DNA of 64,000 nt from Sulfurimonas sp. Its GTDB lineage: Bacteria; Campylobacterota; Campylobacteria; Campylobacterales; Sulfurimonadaceae. The stretch lies in NCBI RefSeq assembly GCF_028714655.1, contig NZ_JAQTLY010000007.1, forward strand, positions 1 to 64,000, given 5' to 3'. Below the pieces are notes generated by a model that made no database searches, was not told where the DNA came from, and saw nothing but the letters and a program-made list of their open reading frames with translations. Shown in pieces: positions 7,600 through 48,553 of the stretch (positions are counted from its first letter, which is position 1; every line of letters starts with the position of its first letter). The position numbers and the translations under genes are program-made.

Positions 7600-9204
7600 T
7601 TAGCTTCTAAATTCGTTAATGCTGGAATCAAGCAGACGAGCTACTTCAAGCAGGCGTTTTGAATCGTTTTCAATGCTGATTACTCTCTCTTTGTTTGATG
7701 TCGAGTGGTGATTGATTTCACCGATTTTGTTTATGATTTCGTCGGTATGTTTTACGATAGTCTCCGAATCTTGAACTGATTTAATCGCCACTTCTATCGA
7801 GTGTCTCATCTGTGATGATGTATCGTTTATTTTTTCTTCAACATCTTTTGATATAGTCGTTAGTTTTTCCATACCTCTTGCATTATCGTTCATCTTATCG
7901 CTTACATCGTTAATAGATTGAACGATTGTGCTGACGCTAATTTCTATTTCAGATAGTGACTTTTGTGTGCGTTCCGCCAGTTTTCTTACTTCATCGGCAA
8001 CAACGGCAAAACCGCGTCCGTGTTCACCTGCTCTCGCAGCCTCAATCGCAGCATTAAGCGCTAAAAGATTTGTCTGTTCGGCTATATCTTTGATAACAAG
8101 CAGAACGCTTTTAACTTGATCGGCATCTTGTTTTAAGTTCGACAACTGACCTGAGAGTTCATTTTCTACCTCTATAAATACGGCAACTTCATCAACAAGC
8201 TGATCTAATACTTCTCTTGATGATTCAAGGTTTAAATTTGCTTGTGAAACTTTTTCTTGCGTCTCCTTTGCCATTGCTATAGATTTGTCGAGAATATCTT
8301 TTATGGATTTGCTCTTGTGCGTTGTATCTAAAACGATAGCACTTTCTTCCTCGATACTGTTGTGGATTGAGTAAGAAGACTCCGTTATCATATTGGCGAT
8401 AGAGACATTTTGGCTTCCGAGAGATTTTACATCATTGATTGTATTTTGTATGGAACTTACAAAATCATTTACCGCATAAGCGGATTTTGCAAACTCGTTT
8501 TCTCGCAGAACTTCAATTCTTTTGGTTAAATCTTTATCCCCATCGACCAGAGCGCGGATACGGGAACGAAGTTCATCCAGCGGAGCGATAACTTCTTTGC
8601 CGAAAAATAGACTGATTATAATCGCAAATGCAACAAATACTATAATAAGCGTAATGAGTAAAATCATTTTCGTATTATTAATCTCAACATCGTTTGCATC
8701 AAGAGAGATTACGAGATTCATAACTCCGAGTATATCTCCGTCTTTTGCATTGGAGTGACATGAGATACAGCTTGTGTCCGCTATCATAGGATTGAGTAGC
8801 TGAATAGAGTGACGGTTGTTTTGGATTTTTTCGATTGTTTTAGGCTTTTTGCCGGCAAATACCTCTTTAATCATCGCATCATTTGTAAATGTTTCACCGT
8901 TTTTTTTGTAAATTTCAAGCACTAGTTCAGATTTTGAAACATCAAGCGACTCAATCCCTTTAATCTCTTTGGATTTATTTAGTGTTTTTGCGACAACTTC
9001 AGGGTCTCCGGTTAGCATACTTTGCGTAACTGTTTGAAATATAGATTGACTTAACATCTCAAGAGAGTGCTTAGCCGTCTTGTTTGAAAAGTCGTTGAAT
9101 GTATAAGAGATGTAACTATACATCGAACCGACTGCAAGAGCACCGAAAAATAAAATTGTAACGACGATACGAGATTTGACTGAAGCTAACATTGTGCCAT
9201 CCAT
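7600..9204 (-). CDS. Methyl-accepting chemotaxis protein with periplasmic c-heme motif
   Basis: A 534-residue chemoreceptor. TM1 spans about residues 13-34 and TM2 about 178-200, enclosing a periplasmic domain of roughly 145 residues. Near its end, residues 146-150 are CISCH, a covalent heme c motif, followed by [14 protein letters not shown] follows TM2. The cytoplasmic hairpin contains the CheA/CheW tip (about residues 383-410, [20 protein letters not shown] and [13 protein letters not shown]). It probably senses redox state or a gas through heme. The same motif and layout occur in the GGDEF-EAL protein at 45995. ATG 9204 or in-frame ATG 9192 could be the start; GGATGG before the latter looks like a ribosome site. 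Confidence 0.9.
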
Positions 9205-37968: not shown

Positions 37969-39013
37969 CTCTACCCTCTATTATTTTTGCTACTTTTTTT
38001 GAACTGCCGTGTTCCAAATAAGCTCTCAATGCTTTTGAATCGCTTAAAAACAAATCTCTATCATACTTTCTGAAAGCATTTATGAGATTTTGTGCAGTTA
38101 CGGCTTCTTGTATAAACTCCGGATGCAGCGCTTTGTTTTTAAATTTAGAAAACATTATATTGCCAAGACCTATATACTCCAGTTTTACAAGTCTGCTTGC
38201 AATAAAGTAATCTAGCGGTTTGGCAATATAGCTTAGCACAAAAGGTATTCCGATAAGCGATGCCTCCAAAGTAGCAGTTCCGCTACAGATAAATGCAAAG
38301 TCTGCTTCAAGAAGTGTTTTGTGTGCATCATTAGCTATTTTAAAACCTGAAAGGCTACCATAAAGTTCTTTTATATCTTCTTTAGAGAAATGCTTAGGTA
38401 TGATAATTGTTGAGTCGATACCGAGTTCTTTTTGAACTTCTTTAAAGATAGGCATAAGTTTTTTTATCTCACCCTTTCTGCTTCCGGGCATAAAAGCAAT
38501 ATGCTTTACCTCTTTGTTAATCTCCTCTTTAAACTCTTTTATCTGATCAAGCAGAGGATGTCCGACATACTCAATCGGCGCACTTTTTGAGTAGTAATCT
38601 TTTTCAAACGGCAGTATTGAAGCAAGGCAATCAACGGTTTTTTCCAAAACCGGAATCCGTTTTTTCTTCCATGCCCAAGCCTGAGGTAAAATATAGTATA
38701 TTATCTCTTTGTTCGGGTACTTTTTTTTGATTTTTTTGGCAAGCGGAAGATTAAATCCTGACGAGTCGATAAGCAGGATTTTATCGGCATCTTTTGCCAG
38801 TTCGACCATTTGCGAATTTAGTTTAAAAAAGAAACTTATTTTTTTTAGTACATCAACAAAACCCATTATTGCCAAAGATTGCAAATCAACTATCGGAGTT
38901 CCGAGTTCGCTGTCAAATATACCGATAAATTCCATATCGCCGCGTAACTCTTTTTTGAGAGATTTTAGGTGGATATTTGCCGAATGTTCAAGCGCGCTGA
39001 CCAATATCTTCAT
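37958..39013 (-). CDS. lpxB: Lipid-A-disaccharide synthase
   Basis: A GT19 glycosyltransferase of 351 residues that joins UDP-2,3-diacylglucosamine (or its diamino analogue) with lipid X. Family motifs are SALEHSANIHLKSL at the N-terminus, YILPQAWAWKKKR, GHPLLDQI near residue 167, MPGSRKGEI and the donor-binding SGTATLEASLIGIPFVLSY. It overlaps the cytochrome gene by four bases and gnnB by 11, so the cluster is one transcript. Confidence 0.93.
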   Translation of the reverse strand: MKILVSALEHSANIHLKSLKKELRGDMEFIGIFDSELGTPIVDLQSLAIMGFVDVLKKISFFFKLNSQMVELAKDADKILLIDSSGFNLPLAKKIKKKYPNKEIIYYILPQAWAWKKKRIPVLEKTVDCLASILPFEKDYYSKSAPIEYVGHPLLDQIKEFKEEINKEVKHIAFMPGSRKGEIKKLMPIFKEVQKELGIDSTIIIPKHFSKEDIKELYGSLSGFKIANDAHKTLLEADFAFICSGTATLEASLIGIPFVLSYIAKPLDYFIASRLVKLEYIGLGNIMFSKFKNKALHPEFIQEAVTAQNLINAFRKYDRDLFLSDSKALRAYLEHGSSKKVAKIIEGRDED

Positions 39014-39378
39014 GAACCGCCGTCTCCTTGTGTTTTGTATTTATCATCATATCTTTTTCCGCTTTTCTCCTCAACAAACTCATACATATAGGTAGTCAAA
39101 TCTTCTATCTCTTTGTCGCTTAAATCGAGCGCAAAAGCTATCATCATCTCTTGTTGCTGATTGTCGGATATTTTAGAGCGAAATCTTTTGAGTTTGTATG
39201 ACATATACCCTTTTGCTCTGTTTGCAAGATATGGATATTTGTGTAAACCTTCCAATTTTGTTCCGTGGCAGCTGTAACACCCTTTTTGCATATAAAGGCG
39301 TTTGCCTGATTCATATGCCGCCGAGGCATCCAAAAAAGAGTGTAGTAGTAAAAATAAAAAAATGTATCGCAATATCAA
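39010..39378 (-). CDS. Small periplasmic monoheme cytochrome c
   Basis: A 122-residue protein with a signal peptide (about 1-20), one heme c site CYSCH near residue 34, and a likely axial methionine in QQEMMIAFALDLSD. The class I cytochrome layout with a KGY-MSYKLKRFRS middle matches small c553-like carriers. It is the first gene of the lipid A cluster transcript; a functional link is not apparent. Confidence 0.88.
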   Translation of the reverse strand: MILRYIFLFLLLHSFLDASAAYESGKRLYMQKGCYSCHGTKLEGLHKYPYLANRAKGYMSYKLKRFRSKISDNQQQEMMIAFALDLSDKEIEDLTTYMYEFVEEKSGKRYDDKYKTQGDGGS

Positions 39379-39402
39379 ACCTTAAATAAAATGAAATTAT
39401 TT

Positions 39403-41652
39403 CTAATTTGTGTTAAGGGTACCCTTAACATATCTGCTTAAAGTAGTAAAAAATTTTTCTACATCAATGGGTTTGGCAAGATGTTCATTCATTCCTGCGG
39501 CTTTTGTTTTTTCTATCTCATCTATCATTACATTTGCACTCAAGGCAATAATCGGGATATCTTTATCGATGCTTCTGATGATTTTAGTTGCTTCGTAACC
39601 GCCCATAACCGGCATCTGCAAATCCATAAGAATAAGTTCATATTTGCCGCTCTCAAACATATCGACTGCTTCTTTGCCGTTTTTTGCAACATCTATCTCT
39701 TTAACATGATCTTCCAATAGCCCTAAAAGTATGAGTTGATTTGTTACATTATCCTCTACAATGAGTATTTTGTTTAAATTTAATGTCTTTTTATCAAACT
39801 CGGTTTTTTCCTCATTTATATTCATAAAATTCGGTTCTATTTCTTGAATCTCTATGTCAAAGAAGAAGCTGCTGCCAATCCCCTCTTTGCTCACTACCCA
39901 AATTTTACCGCCCATTAACTCCGCAAGCTCTTTGCAGATAGCAAGTCCTAAGCCGGTTCCGCCATATTTTCTTGTAGTAGAATTATCGGCTTGTGAGAAG
40001 GACTTAAAGAGTTTTTTCTGTTGTTCGTAACTTAAGCCGATACCTGTGTCTCTGATTTGAAATCTTAATTTGTCGTCATCAATCTTTATAATGGTTATAT
40101 AAATATCCCCGTTGTTAGAAGTAAATTTAACGGCATTACTTAATAAATTTGTTAATATTTGAGAAATTCTTAAACTGTCTCCGTAAAAATAGTCTTTTAA
40201 ATTATGTCCGTACTTAAGATGAATTCTTATATTTTTTTCTTGAACTGTGAATTTTAAAGATTCTATGATGCCGCTAACACTTTTTTTAAGATTAAAAGTA
40301 GTTTTTTCAATCGTTAATTTTCCGGCTTCAATTTTTGAAAAATCTAAAATATCATTTATAATTCTAAGGAGTGATTTAGCTGAATTGTCAATGTTTTTAA
40401 GAAAATTCATCTGCTCTTTAGTTAATTTTGTTTCCAATAATAGATGGCTCATGCCGATAACACCGTTGATAGGTGTTCTAATCTCATGTGACATATTTGC
40501 CAAAAACTGCGATTTTGCTTTTGTTGCTTTTAGGGCATTTGTTTTTTCTTTCTCTAGCTCTTTTGTTCTCTCCTTTACTATTTTTTCTAGGTTTATACGC
40601 CGTTTTATATCAAGATAGATAACGGTAGATAAAAGCAGTAAACCTAAAAAAGCAACACAATTTATCCATATATACTCATGTCTCATATCTTTAAGATATT
40701 GATTTTTTTTGTATGAAACCAGATATGCTACGGTAGAGCCTTTTTCTATATCTTTTATAGGTAAAAAAGAGACTATGGTAGATGAGTGTTTATCATGATA
40801 GTAGAGTGCAAACGAGTTGTTATGTTCTATGTTTTTTGCGATCTCTTTTTTTAATTTTTTAGCGATATCTATCTTTTGGGAAGCAATGTTTTTGGCATCA
40901 TCGGAAGTAGTTATGGAAAAAAGAAAATCATCATGCTCGATACTTTCTGTATATTTTGCGCCTGAATTATTTTTATATATATTGGAATCAAAAATATTTT
41001 TTTTGATTATAAAGCTGGTATCCGTATCGTGTAGCTTTGTCATGTTTTCTTGTATGCTTTGAGATGAAAAGGATATATCTACGCTCCCTAAAAAATCATC
41101 TTTGTAAAAAAGCGGAAAGAGGTTGCGAAAACCGTGATCTACTTTGCCTTGTTCAAAACCGCTTATGGGTTTACGGTTTGTGTTTATATATGCAAATGAG
41201 TGGCGAACCGTCGATAAATCGTCACCGAATACATCCGGGCTATGCATTCTTAAAAATGATCTGTTGTCTTCAAAAGCAAACTGAATGATGTTAACACCGC
41301 TCTCTTTTAGGCGCTCAAAAATCGGTTTAACCTTAAAATAGAGCATTGCACGAAACATATTGCGCTCTTCTTCGTCTTTTGCATATTTTGCTTTGTAAAA
41401 TAGCTCTAAAACCGTAGTACTGTTAAAAACTTCATAATTGATAATATCGGAAATTATACGGTATCTTTCCGTCATACCTTTATAGTTGTGTTGCAAATCA
41501 ATGATTTGTTGGTTTAACAGCAACTCTATGCGTCTGTTTTTATCATTGGTGGTAACAAAATAGATAGTGAGATAAATGGAGAAAAAAAGTATAACAATAA
41601 AAGCTCTAACCGTATTTAACGAATATCTCAAATCGTTGCCTTTTTTTTTCAA
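39403..41652 (-). CDS. Hybrid sensor histidine kinase with CACHE-like sensor and receiver
   Basis: A 749-residue membrane kinase. TM1 (about 12-30) and TM2 (about 327-347) enclose a periplasmic sensor of CACHE-like appearance ([23 protein letters not shown]). The kinase core follows: H-box [18 protein letters not shown]-box [16 protein letters not shown], and [11 protein letters not shown]-terminal receiver (about 630-745) has the phospho-aspartate in [13 protein letters not shown] run of nine A residues in the DNA follows the start codon (K2-K4). No adjacent cognate regulator. Confidence 0.92.
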
Positions 41653-45994: not shown

Positions 45995-48553
45995 ATGCCT
46001 AAGACATTAAAAAACTTTATATTTTCGATAAACATAGTTCTTCTATCAACCCTCTTCATCGTAGTTCTAATCTTTACGGCATATCTGCACACTACACTAG
46101 CGCAAGAAAATGCCATAAAACACGCAAATGTAGTTTCAAATCAAATATTTTCTTCAATGTATCAAGTTATGAAAAAAGGGTGGAGCAGAGAGGATTTAAA
46201 TGATTTTATGCACTCCTTAAAAGAGAATTTTAACGATAGCGACTATACGGTAAATATCTATCGCTCAGATAAAATCAAAGAACTATTCGGAGAAGTTAAG
46301 GAGAAGCAAAAAGATGATTTGGCTAACTCCGTTTTAGCAAGCGGAGAGAAGATAACGCTTACCGAAATGGGCAAACTTAGAAACCTTTTGCCGCTAAACG
46401 CTAAAAAAGAGTGTCTTAGCTGTCATGTAAACGCAAAAGCAGGTGACACGCTTGGTGTAATAGATGTAGAGCAAAATTTTGTCGAAATCATAAAAAAGAC
46501 ATTTTTAGATTATATATATTTTTTCCTCATAGTGTTGCCTATTTTTGTGTTTGGCGCGTTTATGAGTTCAAGATATACGACATCAAGAATAACCGAGTCA
46601 TTGAAACTTTTTAATAAAAAAGTTCAATGTATCAACTCTATGAAAGATTTTAAAGAGTTTGACTCCACCGATATAGACTCAAGATTTGACGAGATTAATG
46701 CAATTATCGCAAATGTAAACGAGTTGGCTCAAAAGCTAAAAACTATTGCCGTCGATAAGGATTTGCTAGAGTTTGAAGTGCAGCTTTTAGATAAGTTTAT
46801 AATCACTTCGGAGGTTGTTCAAGATTGGCGTGACTTTATAAACGAGCTTTTAGTCGATATAAACAAAGTTATGCCTACATATACGCTTATGACCATATTT
46901 AGAATCGGCGATGATCAGTTTGAGGTTGATATATTTTGGTACGGTATTCCGGAGAGCGATGTTAAAGAGAAATTTGAAGAGTATGTAAGAGAGTCTGTTC
47001 AAAACAGCAATCACTTTTTGGGCTATACAGACTATACGATTCGCCACAATACATCTGAGTATAACAGATGTATAAGTATGGATGATTATGAAAATTTTGC
47101 ACATAGAACAAAATCGCTATTTTTAGATACTCCAAAAATAGGCGGAATTGTAGGACTCAGTGTTCAATCTGATATGGCAACAGACCCGATAAAACATATA
47201 GTAATAGACAGTATATTAACGACTATGGCAAATCTTGTCGGTTCCGTTAAGGCGATAAATAAATATACAAATGATTTAGAGTACTACGCAGCACATGATC
47301 CGCTTACAAATCTCTTTAATCAAAGAGTTTTTATAGACTTCTTAGAGTATGAGATAAAGCGTGCCGAGTCTCATTCCTACGAGTTTGCTTTGATGGTTAT
47401 AGATTGTGATAATTTTAAACCGATAAACGACAGATACGGGCACGCATTCGGAGATCTGTTTTTGCAAGAGTTTTCTAGAATTCTTGTAGAGTCAAAAAGA
47501 AATGAAGATATTCTTTCTCGATATGGTGGAGATGAATTTACCATTATTTTACCGGAGTGTGGGTTAGAGGGCGCTCTTGCCGTTGCTCATAAAATAGCAA
47601 ATGCTGTAGAGAAGTTTAAACTTTTAACTACTGACGGAAATTATGCGGGTGTTACAGTTTCTATCGGAATATCCATCTATCCTGAACATGCAAAAACACA
47701 AAAAGAGCTCTTTTTGATAGCTGATGGCATGATGTACAAGGCTAAAGAAGAGGGTAAAAACGGTATTAGAGTTCCTTGTGGTGATGATATCGTCTCTGTG
47801 ATAAAAGATCAAAAAGCAAAATCCGCGCTTTTAGTGGATGCCGTTACAAATAATCGTATCGTTCCGTATTTTCAACCTATCCAAACTACGCTTAGCGGTA
47901 AAAATGAGATACATGAACTTCTAATGAGAATCGAGGTAGACGGCAAGGTAGTATCTGCTTACGAGTTTATAGAAGTTGCAGAGAGTATGAGCATAATAAA
48001 CCGTATGGATTTGATGGTAATCGAAAATGCGTTTATTAAGATAAAAGCGGAGAATTATCAAGGGATTTTATTTATAAACTTATCTCCGAAATCTCTTATT
48101 GTCGGTAACTATGCAGACTCAATCACACAACTTATAAAGCACTATGATATATCCAAAGATCATATAGTTTTTGAGATAACGGAGAGAGAAACTGTTAAAA
48201 ACTTCTCTATTTTAGAAAAATTTGTAATGAATCTGAAAATGGCAGGATATAAGTTCGCAATTGATGATTTTGGTTCGGGATTCTCTTCGTTTCACTATAT
48301 CAAAAAATTCCCGATTGATTATTTGAAGATTGACGGCGAATTTATCATAAATATCAATAAAGATAAAAAAGACAAAGCTTTTGTTCATAGTATCTTAACA
48401 CTTGCAAAAGAGCTTAATGTAAAAACCGTTGCAGAATATGTCGAAGATGAAGAGATAGTAATAACCTTAAGGGAGATGGGTGTCGATTATCTGCAAGGAT
48501 TTCACATAGGAAGACCGCAAAACCATTTTACGATTAACAATAGAAACCTCTGA
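45995..48553 (+). CDS. GGDEF-EAL protein with periplasmic c-heme motif
   Basis: An 852-residue cyclic-di-GMP protein. TM1 is about 9-30 and TM2 about 168-190. The periplasmic domain ends with CLSCHVNAKAGDTLGV (heme c motif at residues 140-144), matching position and flanks in the chemoreceptor at 7600. A GAF-like region (about 270-425) precedes GGDEF (about 430-590, DCDNFKPINDRYGHAFGD, RYGGDEF) and EAL (about 610-845). The EAL box reads ELLMR and the other acidic motifs (FEITERE, AIDDFGSGFSSFHYIKKF, AEYVEDEE) are largely kept. A heme or redox sensor controlling c-di-GMP is likely. Confidence 0.9.
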   Translation: MPKTLKNFIFSINIVLLSTLFIVVLIFTAYLHTTLAQENAIKHANVVSNQIFSSMYQVMKKGWSREDLNDFMHSLKENFNDSDYTVNIYRSDKIKELFGEVKEKQKDDLANSVLASGEKITLTEMGKLRNLLPLNAKKECLSCHVNAKAGDTLGVIDVEQNFVEIIKKTFLDYIYFFLIVLPIFVFGAFMSSRYTTSRITESLKLFNKKVQCINSMKDFKEFDSTDIDSRFDEINAIIANVNELAQKLKTIAVDKDLLEFEVQLLDKFIITSEVVQDWRDFINELLVDINKVMPTYTLMTIFRIGDDQFEVDIFWYGIPESDVKEKFEEYVRESVQNSNHFLGYTDYTIRHNTSEYNRCISMDDYENFAHRTKSLFLDTPKIGGIVGLSVQSDMATDPIKHIVIDSILTTMANLVGSVKAINKYTNDLEYYAAHDPLTNLFNQRVFIDFLEYEIKRAESHSYEFALMVIDCDNFKPINDRYGHAFGDLFLQEFSRILVESKRNEDILSRYGGDEFTIILPECGLEGALAVAHKIANAVEKFKLLTTDGNYAGVTVSIGISIYPEHAKTQKELFLIADGMMYKAKEEGKNGIRVPCGDDIVSVIKDQKAKSALLVDAVTNNRIVPYFQPIQTTLSGKNEIHELLMRIEVDGKVVSAYEFIEVAESMSIINRMDLMVIENAFIKIKAENYQGILFINLSPKSLIVGNYADSITQLIKHYDISKDHIVFEITERETVKNFSILEKFVMNLKMAGYKFAIDDFGSGFSSFHYIKKFPIDYLKIDGEFIININKDKKDKAFVHSILTLAKELNVKTVAEYVEDEEIVITLREMGVDYLQGFHIGRPQNHFTINNRNL

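What the first reader, a model, noticed from the sequence alone, without database searches (positions are those of the whole stretch)
45995..48553. Same heme-sensor layout reused in a GGDEF-EAL protein
The N-terminal about 190 residues repeat the TM-periplasmic domain-CLSCHVNAKAGDTLGV-TM layout of the chemoreceptor 38 kb away, with the motif at nearly the same residue number (140 against 146). One input domain therefore seems to feed both chemotaxis and cyclic-di-GMP, with shared flank signature that could define an unnamed sensor family.
Basis: partly seen in the sequence, partly recalled or inferred. Interest (0 to 1): 0.52.

Follow-up and report, generated by a model that had tools for sequence, protein, structure and literature searches.

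The report
Heme-sensing cyclic-di-GMP switch protein
This gene encodes a membrane protein whose outside half very likely carries a covalently bound heme that senses a gas or redox change, and whose inside half controls the bacterial messenger cyclic-di-GMP; the sensor belongs to a recently named family, so it is a well-defined new member rather than a new kind of thing.

Summary
45995-48553 encodes an 852-aa protein (TM, periplasmic domain with CLSCH at residue 140, TM, GGDEF, EAL). Its sensor is homologous to that of the chemoreceptor at 7600-9204(-): BLASTP E=1e-9, and still detectable with the heme motif cut out. 'Unnamed family' does not hold: this is the heme-Cache sensor (Pfam Tll0287-like/DUF3365 and Mcp40H-20_sensor; 'sCache_heme' in a 2026 preprint, PMC12889525), already reported fused to chemoreceptors and GGDEF/EAL enzymes. 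The profile finds the Geobacter sensors GSU0935/GSU0582, and the model finds them and Tll0287 by fold.

New detail: a nearly invariant Met59 aligns with Met60, the distal heme ligand of GSU0935. Residues 252-430 form a GAF-like domain that no Pfam model recognises. The whole sCache_heme-GAF-GGDEF-EAL protein recurs across several phyla. Selected by the GAF-like part alone, 34 of 37 proteins keep both CXXCH and Met. Sensors cluster by output, so swapping of sensors is rare. The genome holds six heme-Cache proteins: five go to cyclic-di-GMP, one to chemotaxis.

Likely mechanism, inferred: NO or oxidation displaces Met59 and resets cyclic-di-GMP turnover.

The parts
45995..48553 (+). CDS, 852 aa: sCache_heme - TM - GAF-like - GGDEF - EAL
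46016..46072 (+). first transmembrane helix (residues 8-26)
   Evidence: hydropathy; helix 2-57 of the model (numbered from residue 5)
46088..46489 (+). periplasmic heme-Cache sensor domain (about residues 32-165)
   Evidence: profile match to 3b42/3b47; fold match to 3b42, 3b47, 5b82
46169..46171 (+). Met59, predicted distal heme ligand
   Evidence: aligned with Met60 of GSU0935 (ligand role read in PMC8396549); present in 79 of 81 (the other two open frames start after it) and 69 of 70 relatives
46412..46426 (+). CLSCH (Cys140, Cys143, His144), covalent heme c site, in a short helix between strands 3 and 4
46514..46570 (+). second transmembrane helix (residues 174-192)
   Evidence: hydropathy
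46748..47284 (+). GAF-like linker domain (residues 252-430), not recognised by Pfam
47288..47761 (+). GGDEF domain with GGDEF signature and RxxD inhibitory site
   Evidence: Pfam E=1.7e-46; motifs
47831..48517 (+). EAL domain with EAL-type catalytic residues kept
   Evidence: Pfam E=1.3e-59; residues
7600..9204 (-). chemoreceptor (534 aa) with the homologous sensor, HAMP and MCPsignal
8755..8769 (-). CISCH (from Cys146) of the chemoreceptor
9016..9018 (-). Met63 of the chemoreceptor, aligned with Met59
   Evidence: alignments A2 (all 76 rows Met)

Best explanation
A one-protein transmembrane switch. A periplasmic Cache-fold domain carries a c-type heme bound to Cys140/Cys143, with His144 as proximal and Met59 (end of the long N-terminal helix that continues from TM1) as distal ligand. 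In the reduced state Met59 closes the heme. Nitric oxide, or oxidation of the heme, displaces Met59, shifts the N-terminal helix against the core, and the change passes through TM2 and the GAF-like linker to the GGDEF-EAL pair, changing cyclic-di-GMP turnover. Shown by sequence or model: domain order, homology to GSU0935/GSU0582, fold, conservation of the heme site and of Met59, intact enzyme motifs. Inferred: heme loading, ligation by Met59, the signal (NO or redox), the direction of the output (I lean to phosphodiesterase activation, about 55:45).
For: Profile of 76 sensors finds GSU0935 (3b42, E=3.3e-9) and GSU0582 (3b47, E=7.2e-8) first in the PDB and puts Met59 on Met60 in both. Foldseek puts 3b42_B first (E=3.1e-5); 3b47 has 3.4e-4 and 5b82 (Tll0287) 1.9e-2; VIA gives 5b82 Z 10.5, 3.5 A over 125 residues. 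CXXCH lies in a short helix between strands 3 and 4 of the model, as described for sCache_heme. Proteins chosen by the linker domain alone keep both CXXCH and Met: 16 of 16 in Campylobacterota, 18 of 21 in the second class sampled. One of the other three (L263) has lost the heme His and the Met together. GGDEF and EAL catalytic positions are kept in 30-31 of 31 orthologs and RxxD in 28 of 31. Own genome has a CcsBA-type heme-attachment gene and a cd1-type nitrite reductase match, an NO source. NO or CO displaces Met60 in the Geobacter sensors; a fused sCache_heme binds NO and forms no stable O2 complex.
Against: No experiment on this protein. The single sequence matches neither PF11845 nor PF21563 at E<10, nor any relevant PDB sequence by phmmer; membership rests on the family profile and the model. 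Co-occurrence with cd1 nitrite reductase is 8 of 16 against 38 of 282 over the phylum sample, but 5 of 10 against 10 of 17 within the window's own family (counted by hand; tests), so it does not single out NO. The 25 commonest Pfam families among 97 neighbouring ORFs hold no denitrification or NO-reductase family; 83 rarer families were not shown. The crystal sensors are helix-swapped dimers; only a monomer was modelled.
Confidence: 0.68

Rival explanations
1. It is chiefly a redox (electron-acceptor or potential) sensor, not an NO sensor: oxidation releases Met59 and sets the output, as proposed for GSU0935/GSU0582.
For: That mechanism is the one proposed for the closest solved relatives. No specific link with NO metabolism survives within the window's family, and the commonest neighbour families hold none of denitrification.
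Against: The only fused member in the 2026 preprint binds NO tightly with a dissociation rate like known NO sensors; but its distal site is reported without the Cys and the paper never uses the word methionine, so it may differ from this branch.
Confidence: 0.35
2. It is an O2 sensor like DosP, placed outside the membrane.
For: Domain order GAF-GGDEF-EAL behind a heme sensor resembles DosP, whose residues 257-385 are the second-best fold match of the linker (Z 9.9).
Against: No sCache_heme protein tested in the preprint formed a stable O2 complex; heme c and the periplasmic site differ from DosP's cytosolic heme PAS (recalled).
Confidence: 0.1
3. The domain is a small-molecule Cache receptor in which the heme is structural.
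For: The fold is a Cache fold (WalK, CitA, DcuS matches).
Against: CXXCH in 80 of 81 relatives, Met beside it, and the joint loss of His and Met in L263 point to an active heme site.
Confidence: 0.07

Closest known systems
sCache_heme (DUF3365/Tll0287-like, PF11845; PMC12889525)
   Same: Periplasmic Cache fold, CXXCH in a helix inserted between strands 3 and 4, fused through TM2 to signalling outputs including MCP and GGDEF/EAL; enriched in Campylobacterota
   Different: This sequence scores below Pfam's PF11845 model; Tll0287's distal ligand is Cys, and the preprint's fused protein lacks that Cys and is thought to hold water there, whereas this branch has a nearly invariant Met
GSU0935 and GSU0582 sensor domains (PDB 3b42, 3b47; PF21563 Mcp40H-20_sensor)
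   Same: Fold, CXXCH and distal Met60, which aligns with Met59
   Different: Those are chemoreceptors; here the output is GGDEF-EAL with a GAF-like linker
DosP (E. coli heme-PAS phosphodiesterase)
   Same: Works alike in outline: heme sensor, GAF-like fold, GGDEF, EAL in one chain
   Different: Heme is non-covalent in a cytosolic PAS domain in DosP (recalled); covalent and periplasmic here; the sensors are not the same family

Membership tests
sCache_heme | CXXCH heme c motif | tested here: met
   Residues 140-144; first and second Cys in 81 of 81, His in 80 of 81
sCache_heme | Cache fold with the motif in a helix between strands 3 and 4 | tested here: met
   Model pLDDT 85.8; 5b82 Z 10.5, 3b42 Foldseek E 3.1e-5, several Cache chains at Z 8-10
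sCache_heme | Extracytoplasmic, between two TM helices | tested here: met
   Hydropathy; orientation inferred
sCache_heme | Covalently bound heme | not testable with these tools
   Only the motif and a heme-attachment gene in the genome
Pfam PF11845 as thresholded | Score over the curated cut-off | tested here: not met
   No match at E<10 for this protein; 30 of the 81 proteins of A1 match at E<=0.01. So it is filed in the fold-and-motif family, not in PF11845 as drawn
GSU0935/GSU0582 type (PF21563) | Distal Met ligand position | tested here: met
   Met59 on Met60 of 3b42 and 3b47; that Met59 binds the iron is not tested
GSU0935/GSU0582 type (PF21563) | Pfam PF21563 score | tested here: not met
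   No match for this protein; the window chemoreceptor is over the cut-off, 27.5 against 27
GSU0935/GSU0582 type (PF21563) | Helix-swapped dimer | not tested
   Only a monomer was predicted; the alignment to 3b42/3b47 covers residues 79-159 of the model, without the N-terminal helix
GGDEF-EAL enzyme | GGDEF, RxxD, EAL motif and EAL catalytic residues | tested here: met
   GGDEF 511-515, R502xxD505, E641, N695, E727, D757, K778, E817, Q834; which residues are catalytic is recalled
DosP | Cytosolic heme-PAS input | tested here: not met
   Input is a domain between two TM helices with CXXCH and a Cache fold

The most novel reading that the evidence does not exclude
A distinct, cross-phylum orthologous signalling protein: a Met-ligated branch of the heme-Cache family wired by a so far unnamed GAF-like domain to GGDEF-EAL, acting as the extracytoplasmic counterpart of DosP and, with five sister proteins in the same genome, making periplasmic heme a main input to cyclic-di-GMP and chemotaxis in Sulfurimonas-like bacteria.
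Probability: 0.4. Interest if true: 0.5.

Novelty: new member of a known kind. Interest (0 to 1): 0.33.

Why it matters
It ties an uncharacterised GGDEF-EAL protein to a chemical cue that can be tested with one expressed domain, and shows one sensor family covering swimming and surface-life decisions in the same cell. The Met59 position separates this branch from the two heme-Cache proteins measured in the preprint, so their NO and redox behaviour should not be carried over without a test. The GAF-like linker is a conserved domain that Pfam does not yet recognise.

Tried and rejected
Single-sequence searches (Pfam, PDB phmmer) gave nothing for the sensor of this protein; the family profile was needed. 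Link to denitrification: cd1 nitrite reductase is commoner among genomes with this protein over the phylum sample (Fisher p=0.0009), but not within the window's family (p=0.71) (counts read by eye from the tables with E<1e-40 as a full match), so I dropped it as evidence for NO. Neighbouring genes: 97 of the 110 neighbour ORFs were scanned; no shared neighbour gene stood out. An ODP-type diiron protein occurs among 2 of 97 and was not placed; the ORFs I guessed at were something else. Distal ligand over the whole Pfam family: helix register is unsafe there; many PF11845 proteins of the class of G435 have no Met at the aligned place, and for stand-alone ones an aligned Met may be chance, so the Met claim is kept to this branch. 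Linker by Foldseek: no match at E<=0.001; the GAF call rests on VIA Z 8-10, which is moderate. L184 (Chloroflexi MCP) has CXXCH but no Met at that place. In one search the row L266 was cut at the wrong place; its motif and Met are read. NCBIfam gave only generic GGDEF/EAL and MCP models below their cut-offs, apart from the GGDEF domain model.

Conservation counts are biased: the scan pattern forced CH, N, A and D; the first Cys and Met59 were not forced. The linker-selected counts carry no such bias.

Full report
1. Observation. The ORF 45995-48553 (+) is an 852-aa protein with GGDEF and EAL domains. Its N-terminus repeats the layout of the chemoreceptor at 7600-9204 (-): TM, about 130 periplasmic residues, C..CH followed by H.NAK.GD.LGV, TM. 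The two N-termini align at E=1e-9, 26% identity. The likeness does not hang on the heme motif: a profile from 31 chemoreceptor sensors truncated before the motif finds this protein's stretch at E=1.4e-6, one from 26 GGDEF-type sensors at 5.7e-7; best shuffled copies scored 0.13 and 0.078.

2. Family. A search of 60 related genomes (the own one among them) gave the domain in 43; 80 stretches were fetched out of a longer list of matches, and one ORF taken from each. With the window protein this makes 81 (the window's chemoreceptor and two other own-genome copies are among the 80). By Pfam at E<=0.01: GGDEF 42, MCPsignal 32, Tll0287-like 30, Mcp40H-20_sensor 29, EAL 15, HD 2. The two Cys are in 81 of 81, His144 in 80, Pro133 and Gly154 in 81, Met59 in 79. 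The missing His is in L034, the closest relative then fetched, which also has a premature stop and is a decayed gene or a poor assembly; L067 and L109 start after the Met. Over the phylum the profile of 76 sensors (A2; five of the 81 were left out as short or decayed) finds the domain in 268 of 397 genomes and 60 of 68 genera. The preprint PMC12889525 (parts 1-3 of 6 read, passages) names this family sCache_heme, says that more than half of Campylobacterota genomes have it, and lists MCP, histidine kinase and GGDEF/EAL fusions. So the family is not unnamed. A search for that name found this one paper.

3. Structure. Profile A2 against the PDB: 3b42 (GSU0935) E=3.3e-9 and 3b47 (GSU0582) E=7.2e-8, then de novo designs and noise. 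By the printed alignment Met59 falls on chain residue 26 of both; with the Cys of the motif at chain 106, which the review calls Cys140, this is Met60. The review PMC8396549 (passages only) gives His144 and Met60 as the heme ligands of GSU0935, Met60 displaced by CO and NO. The AlphaFold model of residues 5-196 (pLDDT 85.8, pTM 0.71) gives 3b42_B, 3b42_A and 3b47 at E 3.1e-5 to 3.4e-4, with one WalK model among them, and in the second look 9a5d (WalK model) Z 12.0, 5b82 (Tll0287) Z 10.5 over 125 residues, WalK 9.9, 3b42 8.2 and 3b47 7.9 over about 70 residues. The short cover of 3b42/3b47 fits their swapped N-terminal helices (inference). The chemoreceptor's sensor was not modelled.

4. The linker. 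Residues 252-430 are conserved among 31 orthologs but no member gives a convincing Pfam match (best E 0.008, one member). The model (pLDDT 83.4, pTM 0.80) is GAF-like: best Z 10.0 to an Aquifex GAF domain, 9.9 to DosP residues 257-385, then phytochrome, CodY and LuxR-type domains; Foldseek alone gave nothing at E<=0.001. The linker is in 16 of 298 Campylobacterota genomes and 17 of 369 genomes of the class of G435, the genome of L132 (Oceanospirillum multiglobuliferum). Of these 37 proteins, 34 carry CXXCH with Met about 81-84 residues before it (16 of 16; 18 of 21). L263 keeps the architecture but has a CxxC without His and no Met (sensor identity 12-20% to the others over 118-120 columns, and 8% to one mis-cut row), and L264 and L265 have no such sensor. 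One joint loss is one event, not a statistic.

5. Spread and history. The genome-contig scan gave 70 loci; 31 are GGDEF-EAL of the long kind, 11 of the short kind, 15 GGDEF, 9 MCP, and 4 unclassed, most of them short because the contig or held stretch ends. Long-kind proteins occur in Sulfurimonas and kin, Aquificaceae, Hydrogenothermaceae, Oceanospirillum, Halomonas, Halothiobacillus, Oceanisphaera, Marinobacterium, Rhodocyclaceae, Nitrospirae and Caldimicrobium records (titles; architecture). The nearest record is Sulfurimonas sp. STA_12, 99% identical. Met is at the aligned place in 69 of 70. On trees of 143 sensors the four outputs need 3 changes (FastTree, whole domain) or 4 (IQ-TREE quick, periplasmic part), against 71 for shuffled labels; 10 rows without a class were not counted. 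All EAL-type sensors lie on one side of a starred branch (55 rows, two of them unclassed). Near-copies and few columns limit this.

6. Inventory of the genome. A2 finds five sensors in the own genome: this protein, the chemoreceptor, a GGDEF protein (C1:255138), a short GGDEF-EAL protein (C1:96281) and an HD-type protein (C5:137340). PF11845 adds a sixth, GGDEF-EAL, at C17:13369, without Met at the aligned place. The genome has one Cytochrom_C_asm protein of 1050 aa, 5 kb past the window's end ('CcsBA-type' is my reading of its length), and a cd1-type nitrite reductase match at C6:69590.

7. Mechanism. Ferrous heme closed by Met59 and opened by NO or oxidation is the best-supported reading, by analogy with GSU0935/GSU0582; the signal and the sign of the output are inferred. 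NO is favoured slightly by the preprint's fused protein, redox by the Geobacter model; co-occurrence with denitrification does not decide it.

8. Novelty. Known sensor family, known class of fusion; the Met branch, the unrecognised GAF-like linker and the tight cross-phylum architecture are details that I did not see in the parts of PMC12889525 read. Searches behind that: 'DUF3365'+'GGDEF' (three papers), 'sCache_heme', 'c-type heme'+'diguanylate cyclase'+'periplasmic' (ten papers; listing only, apart from the parts of PMC12889525 and passages of PMC8396549 named above), 'Sulfurimonas'+'cyclic di-GMP'+'heme' (one paper, listing only).

Noticed in passing
own genome C1:255138, C1:96281, C5:137340, C17:13369 (L213, L215, L217, L247): Four further heme-Cache proteins with GGDEF, GGDEF-EAL, HD-type and GGDEF-EAL outputs: with the two in the window, six in one 2.2 Mb genome.
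   Followed up: partly
L034 (G004:C27): The 83% identical relative lacks the heme His and has a premature stop after the sensor; decay or assembly error.
   Followed up: no
L263 (G606): GGDEF-EAL ortholog that keeps the GAF-like linker but has lost the heme His and the Met, a natural heme-free variant.
   Followed up: partly
L264, L265: GAF-like linker in proteins of 717 and 737 aa without the heme sensor, so the linker exists apart from it.
   Followed up: no
39010-41652 (-): A small c-type cytochrome gene next to a hybrid histidine kinase with a dCache_3 sensor.
   Followed up: no
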